A stretch of 64,000 bases of DNA from Agaricus subrufescens (taxonomy: Eukaryota; Basidiomycota; Agaricomycetes; Agaricales; Agaricaceae): NCBI GenBank assembly GCA_029945375.1, contig JAQOTE010000014.1:124001-188000 (forward strand). The letters are read 5' to 3'. Under the pieces are notes generated by a model, which saw nothing but the letters and a program-made list of their open reading frames with translations, did no database searches and had not been told where the DNA came from. Every line of letters begins with the position of its first letter. Positions within the stretch are counted from its first letter, which is position 1. This document shows, one piece after another, positions 2,751-30,372 of the stretch. A program made the position numbers and the translations under genes.

Positions 2751-4134
2751 TGAAGAGACTAGATTGGTGTAAATGTGGAAAATAAAATATAAAAAAATAT
2801 AAAATCGAATGCAAATGCAACCCTTTGAATTACACCGAGTCTCGAGTGCGGTTTGTGGGGAGAATAAATCAGAAAGAAAGTGAAAGTAAGCGTCTCAATT
2901 AAGTATTAAATGAAAATAGGGGTAGAATAGAAATGTGAAACAAGTCTCGACTGAATAGAGACCTCTTCCAGACCTATGCCATTTCGATTAGAACCTTCGT
3001 GATGAGTGGCTAAGCTCGCGACGACTGTCCTCAATAGGATGGGTTAGACACCTATCTAGGAGGGGTAGCGAGTCCGCCCTAGTGATGCCTCAACAAACTT
3101 GGAGAGCCTTGAACTGCCTTCGTGCTTCAAGACAGACTGCAAGACAAGTCAAGCTAGCACCAAATGCTATCGCGATCCTATTAGGCCAGTGAAGATACTC
3201 TCTCAAGCAGAACACAAGACCTTCTGAGTTGAGAAAGAACTTTAAGAAATGCTTAGAACACTGCGAAGTTTAACCAAACTTGATTTCACTCGCACAGCGC
3301 TTGGGCAAAGATTCGATGCCGAACCTCGTCCTCGACTGGCAACTATATACGATACACAATAAAAAAAAACTGAGACAAAATAAACAAATATGAAACAGAT
3401 AACCAAGTCCGTATCCAGCACTGAATGGGTATAGTCTCCTCGACTCATCTTTCCCCACCAATCAACAGTCTTGACTATTCAGTCTCCTCGACCAAACATT
3501 GCACTTGCCTAATCTCCTGCTCCCCATTGGCTAACGAGCTTCCAACCCTAAGCCCTAGTCTAGAAACTCTCGAGGCGCATCCCCCACTGATTGTCCCATC
3601 AATAAGATGTCCTTGATTAGACTATGCTTCTATCTTGCCTTTAGTTGCTTTGAGATTATCACTATTTCCACCTGATCCAGAGTCTCGACCAACAATTCAA
3701 CAGTCTTGCTTCAGGTTAATTCAGTCTCGAGATGTGTAAGTCGTCTACTTCCTAGCCCTTTCCTTATTAGGCAGGTAGTAGTTACAGATTTGGTTTAGCA
3801 TAAGGTCCGCTGAAGGAACCGCATTCTGCTAAGTCCTCAAGCCATCCTATAGCCAGTCTCAATGATAATTCCCAATAAAGTCTCTCTAGACTCAGCCTCA
3901 ATACTTCCATCTTAAAGTCCTCGAATGCGATTATATTTCCCCTAGCAGTACAGTTTTCCTACTAGGAATCGCGGATGCAATCTTGACTGTCCCCTAGATC
4001 AACCTTTCTTCACACATGCCCTCGCCTGAGATTATCTCTAACTGGGTGATCAATTGTTCATTCCCAAACTTAATACGTACACCTAACTGCATTAAACGTA
4101 TATTTTCACGCATAAAACGGCTGGGGCGGTAACA
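2751..4134 (-). repeat. 3' LTR of the giant Ty3 element
   Basis: 1384 bp, TG...CA. It aligns through its length with 24743-24950 plus 30622-31815, the copy split by a copia insertion. Differences are mainly C/T and G/A. The right copy has extra units of an AAAAATAT repeat near its end, accounting for its greater length. Confidence 0.9.
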
Positions 4135-4147
4135 TCTCCCCCCCACT
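4135..4147 (-). promoter_or_regulatory. Polypurine tract of the giant Ty3 element
   Basis: Plus-strand TCTCCCCCCCACT, a purine run on the minus strand, directly abuts the LTR start at 4134. This is the position where plus-strand DNA synthesis is primed in LTR retrotransposons. Confidence 0.75.
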
Positions 4148-4668
4148 ATGAAATGACTGTCCTCAGTCATACCAGACTTCATCTCGGAACTAAACTGATC
4201 ATCCCCAATGTCTGGCTGGACTTCAATTTCACCCCTCGACGAGCACTCGCCCTTGGCAGTGGTGGATCTCCCGCTCCGGACATCACTGGCAGCTATTAAT
4301 ATCACTACCACCTTGTTCTCCCGGAATGGCAATTGCCGTGCTTCTTTTCTGATCGTCCCAGACCACGCATTACTAAATTTAGCGCGATCTTCTGATCACT
4401 TTCCAAAGGTGAGGTTTAAACTTCCTCAACTTCTTTTTTGTTTTGCTGACCCTGCCTCATTTTTTCTTTGGGGCATCAGCAGCCAATGGCTCATTCCGTG
4501 CTACCACTGCTGACATAGCGTGCTGGCGCGATCTAGTGAGTCTTGCCTTTTTTGTCTCCACCCTGCGGATCTTGACCTCGCTAATAGGGTATCTTTGACT
4601 GACGCCAAGCTCTGGCCCCCCTTAAAAGCAGACCTTGCCCCCCCCACTTTGGTTTCTTTCTCCCCATC
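4148..4668 (-). other. 3' tail of the giant element
   Basis: The minus-strand frame at 4140-4330 encodes a short tail with the pattern F-S-E...E-D-S-H-F. The same pattern recurs at 16150-16210 (F-S-E...E-D-V-C-F). Beyond that I see only the upstream region of the plus-strand gene starting at 4669. Confidence 0.4.
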
Positions 4669-6008
4669 ATGTCCTCCTCGCCTCCCCAGCTGCCCCCCGA
4701 GATAGCCATCACTGCTATCCTCGACAAGGTGGAATGGGGTGCGCATTTTCCGTCCGACGTCCTTCTCCGGCATTCCGAACATTTTTGCGCTCTGCTGGCC
4801 TACCGAAAGATTCAGCAGCCGGAGGAATCATTGTCCACATCTCCATCCAGCACTCCGCAGACTATCTTACCGACTTTGCCCTTGGCCGTTCGCCCTTTGT
4901 CTACCCCTCTGGTGCCTTCCGTCCTCCTGGCCATCGCTCGTACTCCGATGCCAGCGCAATGTTTGCAGCCTGCCTCTTTCCGTTCTCCGTCTTCTCGTCT
5001 TCTGACTCCTGCCATTCTTGCAGCTCCCTCGACTTCCTCAGCTTCGGCTCAGACTCCTCATCAACCCCCTCCTCGCCGATCTCTTGGTGAGTGGCCCATA
5101 GCTCGGGCATGATGTCTCTTTGCTGCTGTTTGCGCTTCTAATATCACAGTGGCTCGAATCACAGCTCAAGTGGCGTCAGAGGCTCCTCGGCCTAATCTAG
5201 CGGAGGTTCATGTCCCGCCTAATCCCGCTGCTAGTTCAACTGCTGGTTCCACTTGTCGTGGCAAGACCAAATCTCCTGCCACCAAACACCAGCGTCTGCG
5301 TTCTCCGTCGCCTAAAAATACCCCCGAGGTAGTTCCTAAAATTGAGAAGATTTCTCCAATCAAAGCTGCGGCACCTGCCCATTCTCCACGCCCTGGCTCT
5401 GGCAAGTGTCTGGCTCGCAAAACTACTGGTAGTAAATTCCAGGCTGGCTCTTATACTGCCGTCGTTGAAATCACCTCCTCCTCATCGTCTTCTGAGCCTG
5501 ATCCTGTCTTCATCAGCGACGAGGAAAGCGAAAGCGATGACGAAGATGAAGTGGTTCAAGAGGACGAACTCGACGATTCCGATGTCGACATGGAAAAGCC
5601 CTCCTCCAAAAAACGTAAACTGGCCGCCTCTCGTTGTAAGCCTGCACCTCCTTCCAAGGCTGCCCTGGCAACTCGTTCTTGAACTACTCGATCAAAGCAA
5701 TCCAAGACGGTCAAGACTCCTGCAACCGTCGATTCTGATGGTTCAGAGGAACCTTGTGGTACAGGCTTTACACTTTCTCCCTCTCTTCTACTAATCTGCA
5801 TTTCCTAGTTCGCACCAATACTTCTTTAACTCATCAACTTGGTCTTGCTCCCAGTGCTCCTTATCTCGATGGTCTGGCTACACATTTCGCCGTCTCCTAT
5901 GATCTGGTATGCCACCTTTTAACTCCTTCCCTTTTCTTTTTCTAAACATCTTTTCTTAGTATTCCCCTTGTTCTGCCAACTGTCTTAACTGCATGCATGT
6001 CACAGATT
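4669..6008 (+). pseudogene. Antisense multi-exon gene within the Ty3 element, 5' part
   Basis: Exons 4669-5086, 5150-5758, 5809-5906 and 5960-6008. Introns have GT-AG ends and the frame is kept across each junction. The protein starts MSSSPPQLPPEIA, is Ser/Pro-rich, then has a serine run, a strongly acidic stretch and a basic patch (KKRK). It ends in a Cys cluster, PCSANCLNC. One in-frame TGA at 5680-5682 stands where CGA would give Arg. The exon ends exactly at a solo-LTR insertion (target duplication AGATT at 6004-6008) and resumes at 14545. The gene runs antisense to gag-pol inside the same LTR pair. I recognise no domain; a zinc-binding or Gag-like nucleic-acid binder is a guess. Confidence 0.55.
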
Positions 6009-6372
6009 TGGAAGATTACGTTATATCTTACCAACGGCTGATTCGATTCCTACGAATCGGGCACCGTTGGAAAGCCCTGATCAAACCGTTTCTACTGATA
6101 TCCATATCATCCGAAACGGCCCAGTAGTTGTTGAGATATTCAACGTTCTTTATTCTCTGTGCCATAAGTTAGAAGACCTTAATTACCTAATTGTTCTAGA
6201 GCAGTCCAGACCATTCTATAACATTCTAGAACCTTCTAGAATGTTTTCTATCACATCATTATTGCACCATTACCCAGAGTAACCCAGAGTAACTCAGAGT
6301 AGTAAAGGGATTATTCCTATTGGTTGGTTATTATTAGAGTAGCTAAACTTAGATACATAATTAGTCATGACT

Positions 6373-6829
6373 TGTTAAAGTCAGACTACTGACTTCCCCC
6401 GAATACCCATCACACATTAAACATCCGGGACTCTATTATAACGTCTGACTAAGTCCCCACACATAGTAGGAACAATTAGAACGTTCCAGATCATTCTTGG
6501 AACGCATATCCGGAATTCTACTAAGCTACTAGTAGACCCTCATTAATATTCCGACCAATCGTCTCGAGCTGCTTATGCTGCTCGAGATTAATGTCTACCT
6601 TGCACCACATCTTATGAGACGATCTACTCGTCACTTTATCTATATCAAACTTATGCTACATGTATATAAGCTCTATGTTATGAATATGAAAGACAGCTTG
6701 AATATCTCTCACATATTTCGTCTACAATCTATCTGAAAGACTTACAAAGTTCTATTCAGTATATCTATATTCTCTACAGGTGTGTAATCGAGTCCCTGCC
6801 ATTGCGCAAGCTACGGTGCTGTTTCGACA
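6373..6829 (+). repeat. 5' LTR of copia element
   Basis: 457 bp, TGTTAAAG...TTCGACA, with a TATATAAG box at 6663-6670. It differs from the 3' LTR at six positions by eye, all C/T or G/A changes inside CpG. Confidence 0.95.
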
Positions 6830-6841
6830 GGTTATGGGCCC
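6830..6841 (+). promoter_or_regulatory. Primer binding site, half-tRNA type
   Basis: GGTTATGGGCCC follows the 5' LTR directly. It is complementary to the anticodon-arm region of eukaryotic initiator methionine tRNA (GGGCCCATAACC), the internal priming site known for Drosophila copia. The same 12 bases abut the LTR of the other copia element (30361-30372, minus strand). Confidence 0.75.
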
Positions 6842-7025
6842 CGATGGGCCGATTGGGACTCTACAGATCATGACCCAATGATAGACATCTCTTTATCAGA
6901 TCGTCGATCTCGGAATCCGCTTCCCAAGGAAGCATTGCCTGTATCGTAATGCCGACATTCAATTGTTCGGCACAAATGGGAATAGTTGATATACCTCATC
7001 ACATTCTCGTTCCTTTGTTCTATTT

Positions 7026-8737
7026 TTGAGACAAAGCAATAATGCTGATACTCGCCGTTCTCTACAGATGGCCAATACTACTTCTGGTGTATCAGCGAGC
7101 ATCCCTGAGCTCACCGGCATTAACTACGCCGAGTGGAACATCAAGATGCGCGCCTTTTTGCAGTCACACAATCTCTGGGGATATCCCTCAGGATCCGTGG
7201 CTTCACCCACCAATGCAGACGAACTTGCCGAGTGGAAAGGCAAGGATGAACAAGCCGCCGGTTTCATCACCCTACGACTTCATTCATCCTTATTGCATCA
7301 TGTCTCCACCAATACCACTAGCAAAGTCCTTTGGGACACCCTCCTTGCTTCGTATGGAACTCCGGGAACGGCTCTCATTTATTCCGAGTTCCAGAATATC
7401 ATGCGCATGAGAATTGCCAGTGATAGAGATCCTACTCCGGACTTAAACAGTCTCAGAGCATCCTTCAGCCGTCTCACTGCAGCAGACTCCAAATACACGA
7501 TCGCCAAAGAGCTGCAAGTGATGATCTTACTCGCTGCCTTGCCTTCCGATTGGGATGGAGTTTCCTCCACCATCCTAGCTACCACAAAGTCATCCGACTT
7601 AAATTTCGATCATGTTGCGGTAGCAATCAAGGAAGAATTCGTTCAGCGGTCTTCCTCTGCTCAATCGGCATCCGTTTCCCGGATCTCAGGTCTCAAACGC
7701 AAGGGTGATTATAACCCACACTGGAATAACCAGAAAGGGAATTTTAAAGCTGGCTCCAAGGATCATGCTGGAGATAACCGGTTAAATAATCACCACAACA
7801 ATTCTCGTGGTGGTAAACGATTCAATGGGAGAGGATTGTACCGCGGACGTGGAAATAATCGGGGAAGAAAGAACCAACACAACCAACATGGAGAATCGCA
7901 TCAACATCACTCTCATACAGTTTACACTCCAGACGTCGAGTTCGCCTCTCCTGCTGCCTTCCATACCCTCTTTCCTACTCCCTCGACCGCGGACCTTCCA
8001 TCCCACTATCACCCCTCGCTCACAGCGCATGAGATTCGCCTCCGCAAGCTTAGGGCTACCCGAGCTCAAAGGAAGTCTCGCTCCACCTCCATCCTCTCTA
8101 ACGACTCGTCTGGACTTGGAGCACTGATTGACCGCATCTTCCCCGGTCCTCAGCCAAGCCCTACTTCTTCTCACTCTTCACTTCCTCTAATAGAAAGACT
8201 TTCATCATCTCCACCAAATTCCTATATTGATCATCGACAACTGCAACCATTTCCGGAAATCACTTCCATTCCTTTATCAGAGGAAGTTGATAATGCCAAT
8301 GTTGCATATGTTGATAATAATGATCAAAGCGAGGATGATGAGATGAACAGAGAGGCCCCTATTCAACCTCCTTGGGTCAATGTCAACGATGATGACGCTG
8401 TAATCATCGGTGATGAGGAGGAACAAGGGGAATTCTCATCTGAGATCGGTCCCTCTGATTCAGAGGAAGCGAGCAGTGACTCAGAGGATGTGGTCACCAG
8501 ACATCTCGAAGAACCGTCATTCACCTCTGAACCTGACGTTCCAGGAGCGTTCGTAACGGTTGACACTTTCAATGAAGCTAGTGAAGTGATCGCAGCAAAC
8601 GCATATGATATGCAAGTGTCACCTTTGTATCACCAATGTGCTGGTACTTATGATTGCCATCTACAGACCTGTCTACTACGACGACGAGGAAGACTATTGC
8701 TTCCCAATCGTCTCACCCGACATTCAGATGTAGACTA
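7026..8737 (+). pseudogene. Copia Gag
   Basis: The open frame covers the Gag of the copia element. The ATG at 7068 (MANTTSGVSA) may be the real start, because the 14 preceding residues look like leader. It has a UBN2/copia Gag-type core (GINYAEWNIKMRAFL at the start, LPSDWDGV later), then an Arg/Gly and His/Asn-rich segment likely to bind RNA. A long acidic Ser-rich region follows. No CCHC knuckle is visible in this part. The frame is cut at 8737 by the TIR element; residues read beyond that point to 8822 belong to the insertion. Confidence 0.85.
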
Positions 8738-9083
8738 CAGTGGGCAACAAAACCTTTCCAATGTTTTGTATATTTGTAAAGAACATGCTATAGCAGTCCA
8801 AATAAATTGTGTAAAATCATGAAAATATACAGGAAGGTACATCAGCATCTTGTTTACATGTATGTACAATCCTGTGGCTGTGCTTTGGATTTAAGTTCAG
8901 TTTCAAGAGGGTTTAAGATTGAGGACCATTGGAAAGGTTTTGTTGCTGCTCATTTCAAAGACAGAAAAGGCTAAGTGCTGGAGCTTGCAATGATGTTTGT
9001 CAGTTGAAAGTGTTACATAATATTATTCTTATGTTGCTTTCACTATCCTGTGACATGTCACACCTGTTATGTCACACCAAACC
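8738..9083 (+). repeat. Left terminal inverted repeat
   Basis: 346 bp, pairing with 9979-10324. Similarity ends abruptly after ACACCAAACC. Inner bases include a short palindromic GTGACATGTCAC. Confidence 0.88.
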
Positions 9084-9978
9084 ACACCAAACCACTTCAA
9101 ATATTTGAAAAACATTTGTTTATTATTATATAAGAAATTATTATTTAATAAATATCTTTAATTATAATTTTGTATCTGGTCTCAGAAAAAGTTAGCTTGG
9201 AACATAATCACACTTATATGATATGATTAGACCAGTTTCAGCTGTTTTTGTAGATGTTTTTCAATGTATAGTTTTATTTAAACATTATATTATCTACTTT
9301 TTGATCACAAATTTCTGGATTCCTAGGTGGTTCTCATTCTAAAATTTACTATAGGAGCCCCTAGTGTTCTAATCTTTAATTCTGTTACCCCTAGGGTGTA
9401 GTCAAATGTTTCAGTGTACCTGGAAACAGCTTGCAATGTTAGCTTAACATGATAGAATCAAGGGTACACATGTGGACTTATAAAAAACAAGTTTTAATGG
9501 ACTAAATAATCATGTCATAGGCCTAATATACTAGAATAAGTACCTTGTAACAAAGTCAATATAGTTCAATAGTAAGAATAAGAAGAAAAAGGCTAAATCA
9601 AAATGGCATATAGAGATAAAGTAATTTACAAGAGGTAATACAGTTATCTGCAACTGTACACTCAGTAACTGAATGGAAATTGCTATGGATATTATATATA
9701 GAGTAAATGCTCATGTTTTGAAAGTAAATCTGAGATGCTAGCATTCAAGCAGCTTTCAAAATTTGACATAAAAAAAGAAGAACTTGTATTTTCTAGTGAA
9801 AAATGGTACAAATACACTGGGAATGATCAATAAAATAGCCCCAAGATGTCATGCACATACTTTTGAATAATAAATAGCCCATTTGCACACAAGTAGGCAA
9901 CTTTAACCTAGGTACAAGATGAGAAGACTTCAAAGTTTCAAGCAATAGGAGACTTAGACTATTTTCCAAATTACAGGG

Positions 9979-10324
9979 GGTTTGGTGTGACATAACAGGT
10001 GTGACATGTCACAGGATAGTGAAAGCAACATGAGAATATCATTATGTAACACTTTCAGCTGACAAACATCATTGCAAGCCCTAGCTATTAGCCTTTTCCA
10101 TCTTTGAAATGAGCAGCAACAAAACCTTTCCAATGGTCCTCAATCTTAACCCCTCTTGAAACTGAACTTAAATCCAAAGCATAGCCACAAGATTGTACAT
10201 ACATGTAAACAAGATGCTGATGTACCTTCCTGTATATTCTCACAAATTTACACAATTTATTTGGACTGCTATAGCATGTTCTTTACAAATGTACAAAACA
10301 TTGGAAAGGTTTTGTTGTCCACTG
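9979..10324 (-). repeat. Right terminal inverted repeat
   Basis: Reverse complement of 8738-9083 with scattered substitutions. The first 45 or so residues of the frame that opens at 10193 are translated from this repeat and are not part of copia Pol. Confidence 0.88.
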
Positions 10325-10326
10325 TA

Positions 10327-13300
10327 TCTTAAAGGCATATCAAAATGTACAAACAGCTTAGATTTTAACGTAGCAAAACCTGCGCAAATATATGGTGATT
10401 CTTCTTATCACACATGCTATTTATGCGAAAACAACCAAATATGCGATCGTGCATGTTGGCTATTTGACTCTGGGGCGTCTTCACACTTTACATTCAGACG
10501 TGATGATTTCATTGAATATGAAAAGCTATCTAAGCCTATAGTTGTTGAAACCGCCAATAAAAGCGCTCCATTGGAAATCATTGGAATGGGAACAGTTGTG
10601 ATCAAACATGAGGTGCATCAGAATGGACAGCGTATCCCACGTACTTCACAACTCTGGCCTGTCATGCACATGCCAGGATCATCCCAGCGACTTATGTCCA
10701 TTGGACAACTAGCGAAGGATGGCTTGACTATCACTTCAAATGCTCAAAACACGACCGTCTATGACATGACTGGAAATCCGGTTTTTGTTGCTCTAAAAGG
10801 AAGCGGAAAAGGAACCTTACATTACCTAGACTCCAAAATTCTTCAGAGTAAGGAACTAGGGATGGTCGGGAATATCACCGTTGATCACATTCACACTTGG
10901 CATAGAAGGTTTGGACATCCTTCAACAAAAATCCTTCGCCATGCACCTCAGCATGTGAAAGGAATGCCGGATCAATTGCGTGATAACGTCAAGGATCGGA
11001 TCTGTTCAGGGTGCACGCTAGGAAAAATGACGCAGAAGTCTTTCCCTGAGTCCACCAAAAGGGCCAAAGGACCCTTGGAACTGATACATTCGGATTTGAT
11101 CAAATTTCCGACACTATCTTATCACCGCTATAAGTGGGTAGTCATCTTTTATGATGATTTCTCGTCATATGTCCATGTGGCATTCCTTAAGGAAAAATCG
11201 GGTACGTTTGGGGCATTCAAAATTTTTAAATCTATCGTCGAAAATGCCCTGAACCTAAAGATCAAACGTTTTTGTACCGATCGAGGGGGAGAATTTTTAT
11301 CTAACTCCTTCCAATCTTTCCTTAAAGACAACGGAATCCTACATGAGACAAGCGCAGCAGACATCCATCAGCAAAATGGACGTGCTGAGCACATGATACG
11401 TACTTTACGAGAAAAATCCCAATGCTTACGATTGGATGCCTCATTACCCGAGTCATACTGGGAGTTTGCACTTGAAACGGCAGTACATCTCCACAATCGC
11501 ACCCCGCTTACCAGGAGAAACTGGATTACTCCTTTTGAATTATGGAGTAGCAACAAACCAGATGTATCATACCTGAGGGTTTTTGGCTGCGCTGCATACG
11601 TTTTCATTCCACCGAATCAGCGACAGAACAAATTATCGCCATCCTCAGAACCGATGGTCTTCATCGGATATGAGCCCGGTTCGAAAGCATATTGTTTCAT
11701 GCGAATGCAAAAGGGAAATTCCATTCATGTTGGACCGACAGCCCTGTTTGATGAGAATTGGTTTCCTCAATCCTCAGATAAACCCCGACCTGGGTTTGGA
11801 CAACTCAGAGACGACATACCTGCTAACCTGGGGGACACTGATCAATTGATCATGGATCCACCGATTCATACATTTCCTTCGAATCGCCCATCCAATGATC
11901 ATGTCCCCAATAATAGCGGTACTAAGTCTCCGACAACGCCCAAAACACCACAAAAACAAACAAGGGGGAGAGCTGACAGCAAAGTGTCACCACCTGGAAA
12001 GCCAGAACCAAAACGAGTCTTACCTCGTAAAATCACCTTCGCACCCATCAACAACGAGACCACCACACGCCGAGCAGAATGAGAACCTTCTCCTACACCC
12101 CCTGCTCGTGTATTACGCCCTCGTCATACCATTCGTCCTCCACAAAGACTTGGGAATGTACATGGTGATAGACATGTCCCAGTCAATATTTTGGGTAACC
12201 GAGAAGATAATCTTCCTGAAACGAGTCTAGAACATGCAGACATCTCTAAACTCGTTCAAGAAGGGGGAGGATCATTTATTAATCATCTTCTTTCGGTTGC
12301 TCATAACGCTGAAGCTGAATACACACCCCAAACATTCAAAGATGTTTTGAAATTACCAGAACATCTTAAAAATGAATGGCTTCAAGGTGCTTGTAAAGAG
12401 GAACTTGAGGCGTTAAGGACTTGAGGTGTCTATGAGTTAGTAGCTCTACCCAAAAACAGAACTGCGATTAAGAATCGCTGGGTTTTCAATGTGAAGTCTG
12501 ATGGCAGAAAAAGAGCTCGCCTAGTGGCAAAAGGATTTTCCCAGGTTGAGGGTGTCGACTTTGACGAATTATTCTCTCCGGTTGTACGGTTTGAGACTGT
12601 GCGCTTATTACTTTCACTAGCTGCTCTTGAGGACTGGGATCTCGAGGCACTAGACATGAAAACTGCTTTTCTCTATGGAAAATTAGATGAAGAGATTTAT
12701 ATGCAACAACTGGAAGGATTCCCCATACCTGGAAAAGAACATCTCGTATGGAGATTACATAGAGCTCTCTATGGCCTAAAACAAGCCAGCTTAGCCTGGT
12801 GGCGCGAAATGAATGCGTCAATGAAATTACTAGGCTTTAGGAGAATATCTTCGGATGCTGGAGTGTTCATGTACCAAGATGGAAAGGCAATCGTCATTGT
12901 TATCGTTTACGTTGACGATGCTCTATTCATGGGCAATGACCGTAAACTCCTCATGTCAAAGAAAGCCGAATTCATGCAGAGATGGGAGTGCCGTGATTTG
13001 GGAAGTGCGATAGAATTCCTGGGAATGAGGATAACAAGAGACAGGAAAAAGTGAATACTATATCTTGACCAACGAACTTACCTTGACAAAGTTCTTGATC
13101 GCTTCAACATATCCCATAAACCCACAAATACACCTTTACCTGCCGGCTACAAACCACTACCCAATCCTACACACTCCGATGTCGAAACCCGTCGACGCTT
13201 TCAGCAGATTATCGGATCCCTGCTGTACATTATGCTCGGAACTAGACCTGATATCGCATATGCGGTTATCAAATTGTCACAGTTCAGTGCAGAGCCCACT

Positions 13301-13858
13301 CACGATCATATAGATAAGGCACTCTATGTTTGTCGTTATCTCTTGAGAACATCCAATTATGCGCTAGTGTTTGATGGAGGATCAAATGAAGGATTACTTT
13401 CATATTGTGACTCAGACTGGGCATCTGACCCAATAATGCATCGATCAACAACGGGTTATCTAATCACTTTGGCTGGCGGACCGATCTCCTGGTTGAGTAG
13501 GAGACAAAAGACAGTCGCTCTGTCTTCAACAGAGGCCGAGTATATGGCCATGTCCGATTGCAGCCGTCAAGTGATCTGGATCCAATCGCTTCTTCGAGAA
13601 CTTGGATTTCACTTGCCTTCGGTTCCCATTTACGGAGATAACCAAGGATCAATATTCTTAGCATCGAACCCTGTTCAGGAACGCCGAACCAAACATATTG
13701 ACGTTCGGTTCCACTATCTCCGTGAATGTATTGAAGAAGGCAAGATCGAGGCAATCCATGTAGATGGTAATGAGAATCCTGCAGATCTCTTTACTAAGTC
13801 ACTGGCCCTCGAGAAATTTAATAAGTTCAGAGGATGATTAGGAATGGAGTTCTATTAA
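10327..13858 (+). pseudogene. Copia Pol: protease, integrase, RT, RNase H
   Basis: Continues the Gag frame after the TIR element. Protease motif DSGASSHF lies at about 10465. The zinc-binding GAG-pre-integrase segment (HTWHRRFGHPS) is near 10890. The integrase core has DRGGEF at about 11280 and GRAEH near 11380. RT has FDELFSPVVR and the catalytic YVDD near 12910. RNase H (SDSDWASD, STEAEYMA) lies at 13400-13560. All parts are in one frame, broken only by TGA at 12080-12082, 12422-12424 and 13052-13054, each where CGA would fit. A further TGA at 13835 may also be Arg, with TAA at 13856 the natural end. Confidence 0.92.
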
Positions 13859-13900
13859 ACTCGACATTCCGTTTTTCCTACTATCTGTAGCGAGGGGGAG

Positions 13901-14357
13901 TGTTAAAGTCAGACTACTGACTTCCCCCGAATACCCATCACACATTAAACATCCGGGACTCTATTATAACGTCTGACTAAGTCCCCACACATAGTAGGAA
14001 CAATTAGAACGTTCCAGATCATTCTTGGAACGCATATCCGGAATTCTACTAAGCTACTAGTAGACCCTCATTAATATTCCGACCAATCGTCTTGAGCTGC
14101 TTATGCTGCTTGAGATTAATGTCTACCTCGCACCACATCTTATGAGACAATCTACTTGTCACTTTATCTATATCAAACTTATGCTACATGTATATAAGCT
14201 CTATGTTATGAATATGAAAGACAGCTCGAATATCTCTCACATATTTCGTCTACAATCTATCTGAAAGACTTACAAAGTTCTATTCAGTATATCTATATTC
14301 TCTACAGGTGTGTAATCGAGTCCCTGCCATTGCGCAAGCTACGGTGCTGTTTCGACA
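13901..14357 (+). repeat. 3' LTR of copia element
   Basis: 457 bp, same ends as the 5' LTR, preceded by a purine run at 13892-13900. It is followed by TGACT, completing the target duplication. Confidence 0.95.
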
Positions 14358-14544
14358 TGACTAGAGTCCCTGGGGTCATTGGTAGTGTCCCGGGTCCTTC
14401 TCAGATGTGTATATAAGTAGCTTGTCTTGGTGTCCTTAAGACCCAGACTTAACAACATCAGTTGTGCTTTGTCATCTCATCTCTCTGCTTATCTAAGATC
14501 ACTGCTCTTTCCCCATTTATCTTTCAAGGTTACTTAGGTAAGCA

Positions 14545-15594
14545 AGATTTGTGATAATGCGCAACTTCCGCTTGCTGTGCACCACAGACAACCCCATCAA
14601 ACATCACCGTGGAGAGTCTGCTGAGGATGCCCAGCGTTGTGTCGATGCCCTCATCACTGGCGTCGAGTGTGATCAGTGCGACCATGACCGCACCGGCCAC
14701 TGCAGCAAAACCAAACCCCCTGCCTTGCGTCAATTTGCAGCTGAGCTGTGCCACGCACCTACATTTATCATGGGAAATGGTACACCTGCCACCTTTTTGC
14801 TTTTAACTCTTCTCCCTTACTGACTTTATCCAGGACTCTGCATTTGCAATTGCAACCTCGACGTCACCCACTACCAGATCCAAGGCTTGGAGTGACAGCT
14901 CAGCCTCGCTGTCTCCCACTATCATTCGCTCGTTGTCGAGAGCGCCATCAACTTCCTTGCGGCTTATCACTATCATGACAAAAAGCCTGAGTTCTGGATT
15001 GAGGCCCAGCTTGTTTCTGACATTGAAGGGTTTGAAACACTGCTTGCTGATGCCGAGCAGATTGTCAGCTACAATGAGCGCACTCTCACCGCCTCCGATC
15101 TTCCTGCTTACGATGTTGAGGCGCTCGACACTCTCTCCAGTCCACGTCGCTCCGAAAACCTCCTCATCTCTGGTCGCACACTGTACAATTCTTTCCGCCA
15201 CTTCGGCAAGTGGATGGGCGAAAAGCCCTTCCTCGTCAAAGATCAGCAGCCTCTCGTTCAACCCTCCTGGTGGGACTGTCACGTCGCAGCCTGTGACAAG
15301 GCCGGCATCCCGCCATCTACTTGCGCTAACCCTCAATTCTCCAAGGCGTTCGACAACTACCTCCGCACCCCTCTGATGATGGTGCCTGAACCGGCAGCCA
15401 TCCCTACCAAGCCCAACTCGCCCACTCGATCTCCTGCTGGAGCTGCCCCGTCTACGCCTTCTGGGCAAATGATGCAGACTCCTCTTTCGCCAACCTCCCC
15501 TAGCGCTATGGACGTCGAGGCCTCTCTCCAGCCAACCTCGCCCAGCAACACCAATGGTTGAGTGGCTGCCTTCTCCGAGGGTGTCAAGGGGTAG
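14545..15594 (+). pseudogene. Antisense multi-exon gene within the Ty3 element, 3' part
   Basis: Continues the gene begun at 4669 beyond the solo LTR. Exons are about 14545-14779 and 14834-15594, with a GT-AG intron between them in frame. The first exon has a Cys/His cluster (CDQCDHDRTGHC). The second has an alpha-helical segment and a Ser/Pro tail. TGA codons at 14896 and 15559 fall where CGA would be read. If the second is Arg, the frame ends ten codons later at TAG 15592-15594. The exact join to exon 5960-6008 is unclear: the two frames do not connect directly, so another intron or an indel is needed. Function is unknown. Confidence 0.5.
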
Positions 15595-16135
15595 GCGTGT
15601 TGATTGGGTACTCGATCGGTGGTGGCGGTTGTCCTCTGTTTTGTGTTTCTTTTATATATCCACCTTGAACATTGTTTTTCTGTTTTTTCTCTCTTTTTCT
15701 TGAACTTTTTCTCACTAGTCTTATCTTGCATTAGTGCTTTACTACTTCTTAATTGCATGTAGTTAGCCCTCGTTTCTCTTCAGACTAGTTCTTCTCTCAT
15801 CTTGTTCTCTTCTTGCCTTGTTGTTTCCTCATCCTGTAGTAGCATCGTGCTACCATATCTCGTTTCCAAAAAATCCCCACTCAATGTTATGTTGATTTCA
15901 TTTCTGCGACTCTTTTACTACTGAGTGTGAATTCCCGATCTAAAACAATAAGCGGTTGTGTTCTCGTTCTGCGCCAGCCTATAAATAACCCGATCAATCA
16001 CAGCTTATTTATAGATCTGCCCCAGATTCTGTTAGAGTAGCCCTGTCTTGTAACGTTGCCTCGGCACAACACCTCGCCTAATAGAACCTGTTTTTAATCC
16101 CCTGATTTCTGAGTTAAAACCGATCCGAGACGCAT
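15595..16135. other. Non-coding region between the two antisense genes
   Basis: Pyrimidine-rich 3' sequence of the preceding gene, then an AT-rich stretch. At 15981-16015 it has TATAAATAA followed by its inverted copy TTATTTATA, so TATA-like boxes face both ways. No coding frame is convincing. Confidence 0.4.
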
Positions 16136-16254
16136 TGCTCTCCCCCTCACTATGGAAACAGACGTCCTCATCGATCACCGCTCTCACTTCAGAAAAAAAT
16201 TTTTCCTCGATCACACCCTTGATGCATTCTCGACGAATATAAGTTCTCCGTAGA
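16136..16254 (-). repeat. Second copy of the element-tail motif
   Basis: CTCCCCCTCACTATG resembles the polypurine-tract region at 4137-4152, and GTCCTCA follows in both. The minus-strand peptide (F-S-E...E-D-V-C-F) parallels the tail at 4148. It may be a remnant of another Ty3 tail or an internal duplication. No recognisable LTR follows it. Confidence 0.4.
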
Positions 16255-17579
16255 ATGTCTCGCCGCCTAACCATGTGTCTCAACTGTAGTCTGCATCAGC
16301 TTCAATTGTACAACAATTCCAATCCTTTCTGTTGCGGACGCGGAGGCTGAGGCCATGGTAGGGGTTTATTACGAGGTGGTCTCGGTCGAGGGAGGGGTCT
16401 ATCCCCTTCCTATAATTTCTCCCACTATCGCAATAGCATCTCGCCCTACTTTGACAGTAGCTCTTCAGACGAGGATTGCCATACCACTCCCATGCCTACT
16501 GAACCATCGCTCCCCACTAAACAGGCATACGAGGAGGCTGTACATCTCCTTGACGCGGAAATCTCATCTTATTTCCACCACTTCAATCATCAACACACTA
16601 GTCCTGCTGTTGCCCAGAGTTTGGCTGGTCCACTCGAGGCAGCGGGAAGTTTTCTGGTACCCCTCCTTCTCTCCTCAACTGAATCATTCTGTGCTCACAA
16701 CATCCTAGACTTCTCTTCTGCAGGCCCTGCAGTGCTACACTGTTGCTCAGTCTTCTAGTGAAATGCAACAGCTCCTCGCTCGTTCCAAAAGCATGTATGA
16801 ATCCTACGCTAACTTCCGAGGCAAGGGTCACAAGCAACCCGCAGTTTTCAACGAGTTGTGTACTATGCTCAGCGCTGTAGATTGCAATCTCGGAAACAGC
16901 AAACAAGGTCCCCCTACAAAGCCAGCTGCAGAACGTGACGACTCTACTGGTCGAGGCACTTCTGAACCTCTGGCCAAGAAGGTAAGATCAGCCAACTTTC
17001 CACTCTCGCTTTTCCATACCAGCCTATTCTAGAGGCATCGAACTATTCCTCAACTTCCTCCAGACAGCTCAGAGTCCTCCGAGGACGAAGTAGAGTCCCA
17101 GACTATAGTCGAGGCTGCGACACTACTCCAGCCTTCCACTTCTCTAAACGTATGCGCCTTCATCTCACACTCATTCATGCTAATCCACACCCTCAGATGG
17201 AGGTAGACAGCGAAGCCATTCCTCCCCCATCCTCAGACAGTCCTGGACCTGCCTCTCTTCACAGTGCAGCGCCGATAACTCAAAACATCACTGGGCCCAC
17301 TATCCTAGGCGACCAAGATCAAGTTATGCAGACTCGCCCTTGTAGCAACTCTATGTCCGCGACTGTAAGCTTCCTGTCCGGAACTGATGTTCTCGGACCT
17401 CACTTCTTTTTCTTTCCTAGGACCTATATCCTGGCACAGCGCAAATGGTACGCATTTTCCACATGCTGCCCCCTGGCTCCGAAATCCAGCGAGAACACTA
17501 TCTCAATGCCCTCCGATTACAGCCTCGGGAACGTCCACCCATTTTGAACGTTATCTCAGCTGCTACTGGTGTGTCCTAG
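16255..17579 (+). pseudogene. Second antisense spliced gene, RGG-box protein
   Basis: Five exons (16255-16656, 16724-16981, 17033-17149, 17197-17364, 17421-17579). All introns are phase 0 with GT-AG ends, giving about 265 codons. The N-terminus has an Arg/Gly stretch (HGRGLLRGG), typical of RNA binding. A helical middle and Ser/Glu-rich acidic part follow. The last exon contains HMLPPGSEIQREHYLNAL. One TGA, at 16351, sits where CGA would fit. It ends at TAG 17577. An alternative donor at 17569 would add an exon to about 17735 that overlaps the Pol end on the opposite strand. It lies antisense to gag-pol inside the giant element; no domain match is known to me. Confidence 0.55.
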
Positions 17580-18938
17580 ACTCTTTTCACCTTCACTTAT
17601 TCTAATTCTCTTCTCAGCTGACACCAAATCAATAGTCTCGACTGGGTCCTCCAACAGTTCTAACTCCTCTTCACTCGTATCCAACAGCCTAATGATCGCG
17701 TGGGAATACTCGAGTCTCTCCCTCGCCAGGTAAGGAATAACCCGGAATGCAGCCACTTTATTTTGCCATACCGAGCCATCCATCTCAGCCAGAACATATG
17801 CTCCCCCTTTCAACCTTTGAACCACTACCATGGGTCCGAGATATCGAGGTTTTATTTTCCTATTGGCTGACATTTCGATCGCGGAATTCTTCACCAGGAC
17901 CAAGCTCCCTGCCTCCAGATCATATTCCCTAATCCTCACTTTCACATCTTCCTCCAATTTCAAAGCTCAATCAACTTTTTCCTTTGTCAACCTTGCTCTC
18001 ATTTGCTCCACATGTTTAACATGTTTAGCCAGTGCGAGAGCCCTTAGACCGATCAACTCCGCAGTCTCGACAAATTGATCAGGATATTTCACCAACCAAG
18101 TCGCCTCGACTACGTCCAAAGGTATCATAGGATGAGCCCCAGTAACCATGAAGTAGGGAGAACATCCTGTCCCCTTCTTTACAGTAATCCTGTCCGCCCA
18201 CATAACTTGATGTAGGTGCCAAAACCACTTTTTTACTTCACTGTCTGTAGCCTTGTATAACATCTGCCGTACATCCCAATGGGGCCTCTCGACAATGCCA
18301 TTAGCCCTCGAGTTATATGGCGAGATTGTTACACCCCTAATTCCATATTTATCCTCGAGCCACCTCACCGCTTTCCTAAACGGCGAGCCATTGTCTGTGA
18401 CTATTTTCACAAGACTGCCCCATCGACAGATTATGTCCTCGAATAGCCATTGACCAATTGATTTTGCGTCCTCGGTTCTCAACGCTCTTGCCTCCATCCA
18501 TGACGAAAGTCCACATCTGCCATGCACAATGTATTTACAACCATTTGAGGCAGGTGTCATGTGTACTGTGTCCGCATGCAAAACTTGAAAGATCAAGGGA
18601 GTATGCGTAACCACTGGTGGCAACTCCATTGCCATCTTTTGCCGCACCTGACATAAGTGACATGAACAAACGTACCAGCTAACGTTGGCTTCCATCTCGG
18701 GCCACCAAAACCATTGACTGATCAGTCTTGACGTAGCATACACTCCTTGATGCCCCAATTTGTCGTGACATTCCCTCATGATTTCCATCCTATTTTCTAT
18801 CTTGATCACCAACTGAGCATAATCATCCCCTGGTCTTTGATGATACAACTTCCCATCTTTATCTAACCAGAAGTTCGAGGCCGCTCTTGACAATTTCGCC
18901 TCCTCGATTGTAAGTCGATCTTTTGGTAATCTCTCCAC
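17556..18938 (-). pseudogene. Ty3 integrase
   Basis: One frame with a single TGA (17967-17969). The HHCC zinc domain (HDKLGHQ...CSCHLC) is at about 18790-18650. The catalytic core has LHADTVH, VTDNGSPF and ANGIVERPH, supplying D, D and E. The C-terminal part has the basic strand region KPRYLGPMVVV seen in Ty3 integrases. Integrase would insert the cDNA into the chromosome. Catalytic residues look intact; the stop codon breaks it. Confidence 0.88.
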
Positions 18939-19943
18939 TCAATGAACAATCCAGTCTCAGACCTTTCCCAACCAACTGTCCTGTTCTTGAGCCGCAATGG
19001 TCCTGCAATCCTCATTGTAACCATCTTGACCGTTTTCTTCATTTACCGCCTGTTCCTCTTCCTCGATCATTTTCCCAAGGAATACTCGAACTGGTTTGGC
19101 AATGTCTCAATTATTGGATAATCGTCGCTTCTCAGCTATTTCCGCATCTAGACACTTTCTTGCGAAGTCGAGGTCCAATTGATAACTATGGTCCATTGCT
19201 ATCACTTCAGCAAAGAAACCTTTTCTGTCATCTATTTCCTCGACAAAATTGTCTATTGGTAGAGGGCCTTCTTCTCCCTCATTCTCTTTAACCAACTCGA
19301 TCTCTTCTCCGTCATCATCTGACCCATCATCATACTGTCGAGTTGCTTTATCTCCAGGATACCATTTCCTCCGAGACAATCCATCAGGTCCAAAGCCTTT
19401 TCCCTTTCGATGAACCAGTGTGAAGTGGAAATGAGTTCGAATATAAACCACCCAACGATTCACAGTCACGCTGAGTAACTTGCCGGCATTGTTCAACATT
19501 CCATGCAAGTACTTCACATCAGTCTCGACTATGAGATTTCAACATCCTCGAAGTAGATAATTCTCCTCCTTGAGCGCCATGCGCAATCCCACTAACTCTC
19601 GCTTTGGTTGAGAATATTGTTGTTGCCTCGGATCCATTAATATCGAATTAAATTTGATATAATGAATTATTTTTGGCTCCAACTCGTCTCACTGATACAG
19701 GTAATACCCAACAGCCCTCCAAGATGAGTCCACAGCTAACACAATTGGCTGCTCACTTGGAAACCTTGGATTCCTTGTATGAAAACAGTCTCAGATAGCT
19801 TCTTTGATCTCAAGCTGAGCCGCTTTCTCAATTGCGCCCCACTTGAAGGTAACTCCCTTCTTGCAAAGATTATACAAGGGAACTGCCTTCATAACAAAGT
19901 CTCGAATGTGATGTCTACACATTACCGCCATCCCCAAGAAAGC
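18939..19943 (-). pseudogene. Ty3 RNase H and linker
   Basis: RNase H-type motifs: LAVDSSWRAVGYYL near 19740, PKRELVGLRMAL near 19600 and IVETDVKYLHGML near 19510. These give D, E and D. A linker rich in Asp/Glu (about 19350-19250) follows. TGA codons interrupt at several Arg positions (about 19796, 19693, 19542, 19106 and 18940). The frame is the same as RT and integrase. Confidence 0.78.
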
Positions 19944-21410
19944 TCAGATGTCAGTAGTGTTTTCACAGTCACCCCAATTCAAAATTTTCTCGATCGTTTC
20001 CGCTTTCAGCTTTCGCCCTTTATATGAACACTCAAATCCTAGGATAACCACTGTATCTGCACATATCGTCGTTTTAGGTCCCGAGAACGTTCCCCCAGCA
20101 TACTTCATTCGCTGTAGAATATGATTCACGTTTTCCATATGCTTGAACACGAATTTTCTAATCCCCAAATTATCATGCAAGACTTCCGGTACTCCCTTGG
20201 CGTTTTCATATCTAGTCACGGGGCCCCTAATTGGCACATTGTCTATATATGGCAATGTGAACTCGGGAATCTCGTCTCGGAGAATGTAAGTCACATCCTT
20301 GTGAAAGATCGGCACAGAATTAGTCCATCCCATTGGCAAGGTAACCAGGCGTAAGGCCCCGAACAGCGTCTGGAACGTCATTAGGTCCCTCGAACCCTTG
20401 GCAATTTCTCTTTCATTGTAACTCACATACAAATCAAGTATCCCATTACAGGCTCAACCCGCAAAATGCATTGCCAACTCCTCAGTCACGGGTGGTAGCC
20501 CTGAGTGCGCGATCATAACCTCGTTCAAAGGCTCGAGACTGTGCACTAGGTGCAAACTCTTCCCATCCTTTTTAATTACACAGAACCATCTCAACCGATA
20601 AGACGCATTTGAGGGTTTGTATACTCCCGCATTGATCTTTCTCCGGATGATCCTACATACTTCATCATAAACCGCAGGTGGGATTCTCAAGTTTCTCAAA
20701 ACCCAAGGTGTGTGAGGCACAGTAGGAATCTCGACTGAAGGGAAATATTCTTTCTTGAAGCTCCCCCTCTCCGAGTTGTCCCACACGAACGCTTCATTTT
20801 GCGCCATGACTAACCAATGCATCAACTTAACCTCCTCAGGCCATAAAAACCCATCACTATGCGCTTTATCCATTTTTAACATTCACTCCTCGGTATATCT
20901 TCCTGTTGGTACGAACTCAGATGGCCTCCTCAGTAGTTCTGGCATATCTTTTAGAGGATCCCCAATAATATTTCTAACAATTCGAAATTTATCCTGTACT
21001 TCTCCTAGGACAGGCCTGACTTTCAGCGCGACTGGCTTATACTTCTTTGCCAGACAATGCACTAACTCTCAAGGATCACCTGGTTCCTCCAACTCTTCCA
21101 CCGCAACTGATTTATTTCTCAAGTCATGTGGTCTCGACAGTATATTCAGGTACTGCTCAAATGTCTTTTTCTCATCTGAGTCCCCTTTTCTTTCCAAGCT
21201 CTTTGATAGATATAAAAGTTTGAGCTCATCTGTAGTATATGCTTCAGTCTTGATAGGCAAGTACTCCGTTATACTAGCTTCTCTGTTTTCATCCACTTCA
21301 ATTATACAAGCCACCTCTCCTCCATCCCACTCGTCGGAATCCTCGAGGTGAGTTAAAAATTTACTGCTGGCCGAGAGGGAAGTTGTCCTCAGCTGTAAGT
21401 TGGAATACAC
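19944..21410 (-). pseudogene. Ty3 reverse transcriptase with mutated active site
   Basis: Frame shared with RNase H and integrase. It contains the RT entry region (RKINAGVYKPSNASYR near 20620), GALRLVTLPMGWTNSVPIFHKDV near 20350, and the catalytic motif as YIDN rather than YIDD at about 20250. The Asp-to-Asn change is GAC to AAC within a former CpG. TGA codons at about 21068, 20883 and 20451 replace expected Arg. It cannot be active as it stands. Confidence 0.88.
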
Positions 21411-22475
21411 ATTGAGGCTTTAGTCTCGGGGTTTTTCAAATTAAGATACTGTCTTCCGTCTTGATGATTTACGACCTCGCTTGCTGTAACCAAGTCAAAA
21501 GGACGACCCAGTAAGACTCTATATGGTGCCTTCTCAACTACGTGCACCTGAAGCTGTACTGTGAGATCCCCTAAGGTAAACAGCACATTCTTGGCTAGAC
21601 CACACGTCTGAGACACCTGCCCATTGGCCGATTGCATGTTAATTTGCAGGCTTGGATCCCAACTGAGTTTACAGTCCACGGCAGCCTCCCTCGACATCAT
21701 CACAACTTGTGACCCGCTATCTAACAGTGCCTCTTCCTCTCGGACACCATTAATAAGTGTTGGAATGACCATCAATTCAGCTACATCCTTTGCTGAGAGA
21801 CGATTGTGCTCTGCTACCGCAAATATCATAGTCCTCGACTCTTCTGCTGAGTATCAAGTCAACAATTGCAGTACCGGGTCTTTCCCTGTACACATATCCT
21901 CGACCCCACTAGGCTCGACTGATCCCCCAGTACTCATTAATATGTTTACATCAATGACTCTACAGGATCCGCCTTCCTCATCTTCCGAGTCGGTGTTCTC
22001 TTCCATCTCGACTGACTCCGGTACCTCTGCCACTACCTCCTCAATGACTGATACTTCACCAGTAGGTACTCTCTTTTTTGAGATGAGTCCCTTCATGGCT
22101 TCTCGCAGTCAAGGGGCCAACGCCAGAAGTTCCTTCTGCGTGATCATTATATGATTCCCTTCAAACCTCAATAAAAGTTCTGCTATGTCCACACCCTCCT
22201 CAACTTTAGTCTGGTGCTTATATGCTGATCCCCTTTTATTCTCCTTGAAATACTTGGCAGGTAGTGGTGGCACTTCTACTACTGCTTTCAACCCTGGTAC
22301 CTTTCTATAAGGAAACTTCTCGACTCTTGTAGATGAGGTCTCTTTTGCCTTGACTACTTCCTTCTTCTTATTTTTCTGCTTCTCTCCCGGGTTCTCTTTC
22401 CTAGAATCGTCCTTGGTCGCCTTAACACCTCTGAAACTAACCCGTTTTCCAGAGACCGGCTTCGTCACTGGACAT
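21356..22475 (-). pseudogene. Ty3 protease region
   Basis: Frame -1 relative to gag. It starts after the gag terminator and has a Lys-rich linker, then a retropepsin-like domain with LLDSGSQVVM near 21720 and RVLLGRPFDL near 21510. TGA codons at about 22109, 21855 and 21390 match Arg positions. The frame moves by one base into the RT frame at a run of five T near 21356, most likely an indel. The protease would cut the polyprotein. Confidence 0.8.
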
Positions 22476-22487
22476 CCTAAAAAACCG
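22473..22487 (-). promoter_or_regulatory. Possible -1 frameshift site between gag and pol
   Basis: On the minus strand gag ends GTT TTT TAG. Slipping back one base on the six-T run reads TTT TTA GGA and enters the protease frame directly. TTTTTTA is the slip heptamer used by several retroviruses, though here the zero frame is offset by one base from the canonical phase. Confidence 0.45.
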
Positions 22488-24742: not shown

Positions 24743-24950
24743 TGAAGAGACTAGATTGGTGTGAATGTGGAAAATAAAATATAAAAAATATAAAAAATAT
24801 AAAAAATATAAAATCGAATGTGAATGCAACCCTTTGAATTACACCGAGTCTCGAGTGCAGTTCATGGGGAGAATAAATCAGAAAGAAAGTGAAAGTAAGC
24901 GTCTTGATTAAATATTAAATGAAAATAGGGGTAGAATAGAAATGTGAAAC

Positions 24951-25218
24951 TGTTAATCTAGTGATATGAGATTCTCTGATTGAACGGAAGAAACAACCAT
25001 TGATTAATACCTAGTGATATGACTAGGTACATGTTAGGATGATATACATAACGAGATAAGGGAGGACACATACGATTCTCTGATTGAACGGAAGAAACAA
25101 CCAGAGAATCGGATACGGAAACAATGTCTAATATACTGGACTCGGAGGTCATGTGATTTATGATCATGTCTTTGACCAATGAATACGTTCATCTTTGACC
25201 TAATGAATACATTCAACA
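24951..25218 (-). repeat. 3' LTR of second copia element
   Basis: 268 bp, TGTTAATC...ATTCAACA. It is about 24 bp longer than the partner because a short tail segment (GACC...GAATAC...TTCA) is duplicated at its end. Confidence 0.92.
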
Positions 25219-25337
25219 CACCCAAAAAGAAAGATATGATCAAAAGGAAGAAAAAAAAAAAAAACACAGAAAAACGAATGTAGAGAGGAAGAGAGAGAGA
25301 AAAAACGAGCTGAATAAACAAGAAGAAGGAAGAGGAA

Positions 25338-30205: not shown

Positions 30206-30372
30206 GTTGATTGTATGCAGAAAAATATTGAATATATGCGTCCAATCCTTTGTCTCGAAGCCGAAATAAGATATGGATAACCTGCAATAGAAGCCTAATG
30301 GGGTATAGTGGGTTGATAATTCAATTGAATCGTCAAATACTAGAAAAATTTGGTTAGGCGGGGCCCATAACC

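What the first reader, a model, noticed from the sequence alone, without database searches (positions are those of the whole stretch)
4135..17735. Spliced genes carried antisense inside a giant Ty3 retrotransposon
Between the Pol end (17556) and the 3' polypurine tract (4135) of one LTR-bounded element lie two plus-strand genes with at least nine GT-AG introns in all. Most junctions keep the frame. Antisense orientation would let introns survive retrotransposition, because the genomic RNA is the other strand and its intron signals are reversed. One protein has Cys clusters and an acidic/basic layout, the other an RGG box; both could bind nucleic acid. Antisense ORFs at this position are known in some plant Ty3 elements (for example Grande, RIRE2). 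I know of no described fungal family with two spliced ones, but cannot search.
Basis: partly seen in the sequence, partly recalled or inferred. Interest (0 to 1): 0.82.

Follow-up and report, generated by a model that had tools for sequence, protein, structure and literature searches.

The report
Two spliced antisense genes in retrotransposons
A fungus, probably a mushroom, carries retrotransposons in which two intron-containing genes lie on the strand opposite the usual gag-pol genes; they recur in three families of the element and keep their protein sequence, so they look like real parts of it, though their job is unproven.

Summary
Between pol and the 3' LTR of a minus-strand Ty3 element lie two plus-strand genes: A (4 exons) and B (6 exons), with 8 supported GT-AG introns; a ninth is ambiguous. 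The "giant" size is not native: 5998-14556 is a nested insertion (an LTR fragment holding a Ty1/copia element) that splits gene A. The window copy is decayed: stops in both genes and a 359-nt deletion in gene B.

The module gives 18 long matches in the genome (window included) and recurs in two further families, F2 and F3. Exon lengths change mostly by multiples of three, intron lengths do not. Gene A is under purifying selection (omega 0.15-0.28; 0.89-1.56 in shifted frames). All five gene B introns keep phase and approximate position across the three families. F3 has 21 places with the module, 16 at 100% (rounded); nine copies with readable edges lie at seven sites. The one junction tested is unspliced at 22 places, spliced at none.

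Antisense genes at this position are known in plant Ty3 elements and in Botrytis Boty, so this is a new variant. Transcription and function (probably nuclear accessory proteins) are inferred.

The parts
2751..4134 (-). 3' LTR of the Ty3 element (family F1), followed inward by the polypurine tract (4135 onward, read on the minus strand)
4669..5758 (+). Gene A exon 1 (N-terminal region, acidic stretch, KKRK basic stretch); in-frame stops in this copy
   Evidence: projected by hand from L012
5759..5808 (+). Gene A intron 1 (GT-AG, 50 nt)
   Evidence: projected by hand from L012
5809..5906 (+). Gene A exon 2
   Evidence: projected by hand from L012
5907..5959 (+). Gene A intron 2 (GT-AG)
   Evidence: projected by hand from L012
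5960..5997 (+). Gene A exon 3, first part (Cys cluster), cut by the nested insertion
5998..14556 (.). Nested insertion, not native: LTR fragment of another family (5998-6372 and 14358-14556) holding a Ty1/copia element (6373-14357)
14557..14779 (+). Gene A exon 3, rest (second Cys cluster)
14780..14833 (+). Gene A intron 3 (GT-AG, 54 nt)
   Evidence: row L009
14834..15594 (+). Gene A exon 4 (conserved C-terminal region); in-frame stop in this copy
16255..16656 (+). Gene B exon 1 (RG/RGG-rich N-terminus); in-frame stop in this copy
16724..16981 (+). Gene B exon 2 (intron 1 is 16657-16723)
17033..17149 (+). Gene B exon 3 (a basic KK/RRR stretch spans intron 2, 16982-17032)
17197..17364 (+). Gene B exon 4 (intron 3 is 17150-17196); region of the conserved RxRSNS motif
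17421..17568 (+). Gene B exon 5 (intron 4 is 17365-17420)
17618..17625 (+). Stub of gene B exon 6 (intron 5 is 17569-17617); the rest is missing through a 359-nt deletion relative to L012, also seen in the C2 and C7 relatives
17556..24410 (-). gag-pol of the Ty3 element, interrupted by stops and frame changes in this copy
24743..31815 (-). 5' LTR of the element, interrupted by a second copia element at about 24947-30613

Best explanation
These are two genuine accessory genes of one lineage of fungal (probably basidiomycete) Ty3 retrotransposons, carried on the strand opposite gag-pol between pol and the 3' LTR. Each is expected to be transcribed by RNA polymerase II toward pol, spliced, and translated into a protein with nuclear-type features. 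Protein A has an acidic stretch, a basic stretch and CxxC-type Cys clusters. Protein B has an RG-rich N-terminus, a basic KKRRR-like stretch, an RxRSNS motif and a conserved C-terminus of coiled-coil appearance. They most likely act as nuclear regulatory factors of the element (transcription, RNA handling or integration). Their introns persist because the RNA that is reverse-transcribed is the complementary strand, in which those splice signals do not exist. SHOWN: presence, position, recurrence, codon-level constraint, intron-position agreement, and retention of introns in recent copies at DNA level. INFERRED: transcription, splicing in vivo, nuclear location and biochemical role.
For: Recurrence: 18 matches of about 2.5 kb or more to 14358-17556, window included, a lower bound as 40 of 66 candidates were scored; 16 of the 18 have family pol within 430 nt. 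Structure: 39 of 40 complete gene A introns and 73 of 75 gene B introns read GT-AG (left out: truncated gene B of L025, of whose two introns present one reads GT-CT, and a partial L024 gene A intron). 9 of 11 full-length gene A rows keep the frame in all four exons. Selection: gene A, 21 pairs, omega 0.154-0.282 in the sense frame against 0.89-1.56 in the +1/+2 frames; gene B, 28 pairs, 0.138-0.676. One antisense frame is also low (shared third positions) but has 19-37 stops in the 14 rows counted. The pol 3' part of six copies gives 0.071-0.449 over 15 pairs. Other families: gene A exon 4 at 54-55% and gene B exon 6 at 70-71% in F2; gene B exon 6 at 32% at 20 F3 places. All five gene B introns agree in phase in F1, F2 and F3; F1-F3 positions agree in the same column for three, within 1 for a fourth, within 5 for the fifth; F1-F2 within 9 at that fifth. 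Gene A: all three F1 introns are at the same columns in F2; intron 3 is at the same column in F3, and intron 1 has an F3 counterpart six columns off. F3: 21 places with the module; nine readable copies at 7 distinct sites, all with a matching 4-bp duplication. Unspliced junction 22 places, spliced 0. An older F3-like copy: gene A omega 0.291 against 0.93 and 1.16 in shifted frames.
Against: No RNA evidence could be examined. Neither protein reaches a Pfam cut-off: F1 A and B gave nothing at E up to 1; F2 and F3 gave three weak matches below cut-off (best E 0.04). Protein A had one weak solved-structure match (E 0.58); B was not tried there. So the role rests on motifs alone. Gene B constraint is weaker: in 4 of 28 pairs, all involving L009 or L021, the sense-frame omega exceeds that of the +1 frame, and in a few pairs an antisense frame is lower than the sense frame. 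Gene A introns are less stable: F1 intron 2 is absent in F3, and F2 and F3 each have an extra one; one F2 gene B intron starts with GC. F2 and F3 models were chosen by eye with F1 in view. Two searches found no relative of protein A although that database holds Agaricus bisporus pol at 90% identity; its length limits could hide them. TATA-like boxes were found upstream of F1 B, F2 A, F2 B and F3 A but not F1 A (150 nt looked at) or F3 B (330 nt).
Confidence: 0.8

Rival explanations
1. The function is the antisense RNA, not the proteins: antisense transcription over the 3' end of the element regulates or silences it, and the reading frames are incidental.
For: Antisense noncoding transcripts are known in other retroelements, and dsRNA silencing is discussed for antisense ORFs in PMC7264820 (passages read).
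Against: Amino-acid-level constraint, frame-preserving exon indels with free intron indels, and protein similarity across families.
Confidence: 0.05
2. Capture of two host genes (transduction) by an element.
For: The genes have introns, as host genes do, and lack Pfam similarity to retroelement proteins.
Against: Shared by three families with diverged proteins, so any capture is old. No clearly separate host gene appeared among the hits, though their surroundings were not all inspected. An old capture in the ancestor of F1-F3 fits the failure to find the module in two F4 copies and is not excluded.
Confidence: 0.07
3. The plus-strand coding in the region is an artefact of the nested copia insertion and spurious exon chaining.
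Against: The exons lie outside the nested insertion and are contiguous in sister copies that lack it.
Confidence: 0.01
4. The proteins are structural or envelope-like rather than regulatory.
For: [quoted passage not shown]
Against: Antisense orientation; no obvious membrane segments were noticed by eye in the translations (no prediction was run); both proteins have long acidic and basic low-complexity stretches typical of nuclear proteins (recalled).
Confidence: 0.07

Closest known systems
Boty / BcGypsy1 brtn of Botrytis cinerea (Zhao et al. 2011, Virology 417:248; not read, seen only as cited in passages of PMC7264820, PMC8365987, PMC4227169)
   Same: A fungal LTR element with an additional gene antisense to gag-pol, listed by PMC7264820 among elements with antisense ORFs between pol and 3' LTR.
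   Different: One gene is described, in an ascomycete element whose gag-pol product carries a chromodomain (PMC4227169 passage). Whether brtn has introns or resembles A or B could not be tested.
Plant antisense aORF-3R elements: maize Grande gene23, rice RIRE2, Silene Retand (TRP28 domain, PF04195)
   Same: Long pol-to-3'LTR region with conserved antisense ORFs, proposed regulatory, possibly DNA-binding proteins; nuclear location reported for Grande (PMC7264820 and PMC11963269, passages).
   Different: No PF04195 match here. The word intron does not occur in the main text of either paper, though PMC7264820 recommends looking for antisense and spliced transcripts. Here there are two genes, with 3-4 and 5 introns.
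HTLV-1 HBZ (recalled; named in PMC11963269 passages)
   Same: Antisense, nuclear regulatory gene of an LTR retroelement; its splicing is recalled, not looked up.
   Different: HBZ is a bZIP protein driven from the 3' LTR (recalled). No sequence comparison was made.

Membership tests
Ty3 (Metaviridae) LTR retrotransposon | LTRs, gag, aspartyl protease, RT, RNase H, integrase in Ty3 order | tested here: met
   F3 copy: gag-asp_proteas, RT_RNaseH and Integrase_H2C2 above cut-off, Ty3_capsid below cut-off, RVT_1 and rve not matched at E 0.1, though several database relatives carry PF00078 and PF00665; window RT-containing frame 76% identical to F3; LTR pair
Chromovirus branch of Ty3 | Chromodomain at the integrase C-terminus | tested here: inconclusive
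   No chromodomain match in L041:3149-6700, but the last part of that Pol lies in L039 and was only read by eye
[quoted passage not shown]
   F3: 21 places, 19 of them through the LTR edge; F1: next to pol in 16 of 18 long matches
Plant Retand/Grande antisense aORF-3R | TRP28 domain (PF04195) | tested here: not met
   No PF04195 match at E up to 1 (F1) or 5 (F2 and F3)
Boty brtn | Sequence similarity to BRTN protein | not tested
   Sequence and primary paper not held
Fungal Zn2Cys6 transcription factor | C-x2-C-x6-C-x5-12-C-x2-C-x6-9-C cluster (recalled) | tested here: not met
   Protein A has CxxC-x6/7-C repeats but with a much longer loop, and F2 lacks one Cys (read by eye); no Zn_clus match
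Ty1/copia (nested element at 6373-14357) | RVT_2, rve and copia gag domains between LTRs | tested here: met

The most novel reading that the evidence does not exclude
A lineage of fungal Ty3 retrotransposons carries a conserved two-gene, intron-rich regulatory module on its antisense strand. The introns are kept, rather than merely tolerated, because they mark the coding RNA as a nuclear transcript made from an integrated copy, so that the two proteins are produced only from integrated elements: a provirus-state switch analogous to HTLV HBZ but evolved independently.
Probability: 0.2. Interest if true: 0.85.

Novelty: new variant of a known kind. Interest (0 to 1): 0.62.

Why it matters
LTR retrotransposons normally lose introns because they pass through RNA. 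Here a module of about eight introns has been kept through family divergence and in recent copies, because it sits on the opposite strand. That makes it a clean natural system for asking what antisense accessory genes do, a question that PMC7264820 calls open. Family F3, with many near-identical copies, makes antisense expression and splicing directly testable in a fungus.

Tried and rejected
Rejected: reading 6990-13837 as antisense genes of the element (it is copia gag-pol). Rejected for F1: an extra gene A intron at about 5087-5150 (frame open across it in several copies, acceptor not kept in L012). A homeodomain-like reading frame beside one F3 copy lies outside the LTR edge shared by the copies and is not part of the element.

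Led nowhere: Pfam for A and B, solved structures for A (B not tried), protein homology for A, viral contigs with A and with pol. Structure prediction of a 161-residue piece of gene A from the window alone gave mean pLDDT 41.8 and was not used. The comparison with the older F3-like copy L065 ended with an error in gene B, where that copy is cut short, after the gene A result. For F5 (one copy, 50% RT identity) the presence of the module could not be decided. In two of four F4 copies no module was found, but their pol end and LTR were not identified. The output was cut; the part for L042-L044 was visible. The first edge script used a wrong LTR end and was replaced. By my reading the window element shows no matching target duplication; no script tested it.

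Literature: nine search requests, one turned down for a sign in a term. Answered. No title or abstract start that I saw in these listings describes a spliced or two-gene antisense module in a basidiomycete Ty3 element. Passages only were read of PMC7264820, PMC11963269, PMC8365987, PMC6431247 and PMC4227169. Most subscription papers, including Zhao et al. 2011, are not held.
Full report
WHAT IS THERE. The window lies in an unnamed 44.65-Mb genome in 44 contigs. The minus-strand Ty3 element runs from its 5' LTR (24743 to about 31815, interrupted by a copia element at about 24947-30613) through gag-pol (24410 down to 17556) to the 3' LTR 2751-4134. The two LTRs differ by K2P 0.061 over 1395 sites, 74 transitions and 7 transversions. 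Of the 13.4 kb between pol and the 3' LTR, 8.56 kb (5998-14556) is a nested insertion: an LTR fragment of another family into which a Ty1/copia element (6373-14357) has jumped. Without it the region is about 5 kb, and an F3 relative is 14.3 kb long in all (edges). The element is therefore not giant by itself.

THE TWO GENES. Sister copies without the nested insertion show gene A as four exons (735 codons with stop in L012) and gene B as six exons (447-448 codons in most rows). In the window both are broken: in-frame stops, the nested insertion in exon 3 of A, and a 359-nt deletion relative to L012 that takes nearly all of the last exon of B. Near-identical relatives of the window element on contigs C2 and C7 share its flanks of the nested insertion and look like duplications of one insertion (inferred).

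MORE THAN CHANCE. The genome holds 18 matches of about 2.5 kb or more to 14358-17556, window and the two relatives included; 40 of 66 candidates were scored, so this is a lower bound. 16 of the 18 have pol sequence of the family within 430 nt. In an alignment of 19 rows (single copies or pieces; L021 and L029 are two pieces of one copy), 39 of 40 complete gene A introns and 73 of 75 complete gene B introns read GT-AG. I left out the truncated gene B of L025 (two introns present, one reading GT-CT), a partial gene A intron of L024 and rows without data. 9 of 11 full-length gene A rows keep the frame in all four exons, while intron lengths vary by up to 7 nt. Gene A is free of stops in 4 of those 11 rows, gene B in 4 of 15 rows. 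Pairwise omega (Nei-Gojobori) for gene A is 0.154-0.282 in 21 pairs of 7 rows, while the +1 and +2 frames of the same DNA give 0.89-1.56. Gene B gives 0.138-0.676 in 28 pairs of 8 rows; in 4 of the 28, all involving L009 or L021, the sense frame is higher than the +1 frame, and in a few pairs an antisense frame is lower than the sense frame. The antisense frame whose third positions coincide is low throughout but carries 19-37 stops in the 14 rows counted. The pol 3' part of six copies gives 0.071-0.449 in 15 pairs, so the accessory genes are constrained, on the whole somewhat less than pol.

OTHER FAMILIES. Protein searches of the same genome found gene A exon 4 in F2 at 54-55% identity, and gene B exon 6 at 70-71% in F2 and at 32% at 20 F3 places (E 1.8e-4). 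Over gene A exon 4 the F3 protein is only 21% identical to F1. Reading the stretches beyond pol in F2 (L040) and F3 (L039) gave models open throughout: F2 A with 4 introns and B with 5 (one starting with GC); F3 A with 3 and B with 5. In gene B all five introns agree in phase in the three families. For F1-F3, three fall in the same alignment column, a fourth within one column, the fifth within five; F1-F2 agree exactly in four and within nine columns in that fifth. No random placement in 200,000 reached the F1-F3 agreement, but the F2 and F3 sites were chosen by eye beforehand, with F1 in view, so this is indicative only. In gene A all three F1 introns have F2 counterparts in the same columns; the intron before the C-terminal region is also at the same column in F3; the first F1 intron has an F3 counterpart six columns away; F1 intron 2 is absent in F3; and F2 and F3 each have one more intron in the linker.

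SURVIVAL THROUGH TRANSPOSITION. F3 has 21 places with the antisense region (16 at 100%, 3 at 99%, one at 97%, one at 96%, rounded; two further rows are LTR only; 23 of 120 candidates were scored, so a lower bound). Of ten copies whose edges I fetched, nine could be read and one read N; the nine fall at seven distinct sites, all with a matching 4-bp target duplication. One unspliced gene B junction occurs at 22 places, its spliced form at none, with up to two mismatches; the other junctions were not tested in this way. An older F3-like copy (L065, 88% DNA identity) shows gene A omega 0.291 against 0.93 and 1.16 in shifted frames. So introns passed intact through several transposition events, as the antisense logic predicts.

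WHERE THE MODULE ENDS. An RT search separates this lineage from the other Ty3 elements listed: F3 100%, F2 87%, F1 mostly 71-83%, F4 58-61%, F5 50%, then a fall to about 30% and below (150 of 244 candidates scored). In two of the four F4 copies the DNA similarity between the copies stops about 1.2 kb into the stretch fetched beyond the expected pol end, and the best match to any module protein has E 0.018. I did not identify the F4 pol end or LTR, so the module may be confined to F1-F3, but this is not proven. F5 could not be judged.

WHAT IT DOES. Neither protein reaches a Pfam cut-off. The motif reading (Cys clusters, acidic and basic stretches in A; RG-rich N-terminus, KK/RRR stretch, RxRSNS motif and a conserved C-terminus in B) points to nuclear, nucleic-acid-associated proteins, by inference. 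TATA-like boxes occur upstream of F1 B, F2 A, F2 B and F3 A but were not found for F1 A or F3 B, so separate promoters are plausible but not shown. I favour a regulatory role by analogy with plant antisense accessory proteins, for which nuclear location and possible DNA binding are reported (PMC7264820, PMC11963269; passages).

WHAT IS KNOWN. [quoted passage not shown] known to me only through citing papers). The listings showed no paper on a spliced or two-gene antisense module in a basidiomycete Ty3 element; that library lacks most subscription papers. I therefore call this a new variant of a known kind. A database search with F3 pol returned 1164 proteins (120 listed), the best at 90% identity from Agaricus bisporus var. 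burnettii, so the host is probably a relative and the pol lineage is widespread. Two searches with protein A found nothing, but limits on candidate length and on exon prediction make that weak evidence of absence; protein B was not searched there.

Noticed in passing
L045-L064 (edges of ten F3 copies): Seven of seven distinct F3 insertion sites (nine readable copies) have a 4-bp target duplication with CG in the middle (TCGC, TCGG, CCGC, CCGG, GCGG). CG makes up 3.55% of dinucleotides in the window. This suggests a target preference; 4 bp differs from the 5 bp usual for Ty3 (recalled).
   Followed up: partly
window 17618-17625: A 359-nt deletion relative to L012, also seen in the C2 and C7 relatives, removes nearly all of gene B's last exon next to the pol end.
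   Followed up: yes
window 5998-14556 and about 24947-30613: Two separate copia insertions in one Ty3 element, the first inside an LTR fragment of a further family.
   Followed up: yes
window 31777-32925 and 35057-36505: Beyond the 5' LTR: a copia RVT_2 fragment (its open frame starts inside the LTR end) and a chromodomain-bearing Ty3 integrase, so the region is a nest of elements.
   Followed up: no
L041 46-6700: F3 gag, protease and RT-integrase lie in three successive overlapping frames, each step -1; the protease frame matches DUF4100 above its cut-off.
   Followed up: no
L028 (C8:637549-641793), L030 (C5:84391-88393), L065 (C3:1938501-1944500): L028 and L030 are decaying gene A copies with no F1 pol match close by in the capped list; L065 is an older F3-like copy with gene A and part of gene B.
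   Followed up: partly
L039 about 6400-7500 (minus strand): A host-side reading frame with a homeodomain-like stretch (IRNWYKNQCRK; likeness recalled) beside one F3 insertion.
   Followed up: no
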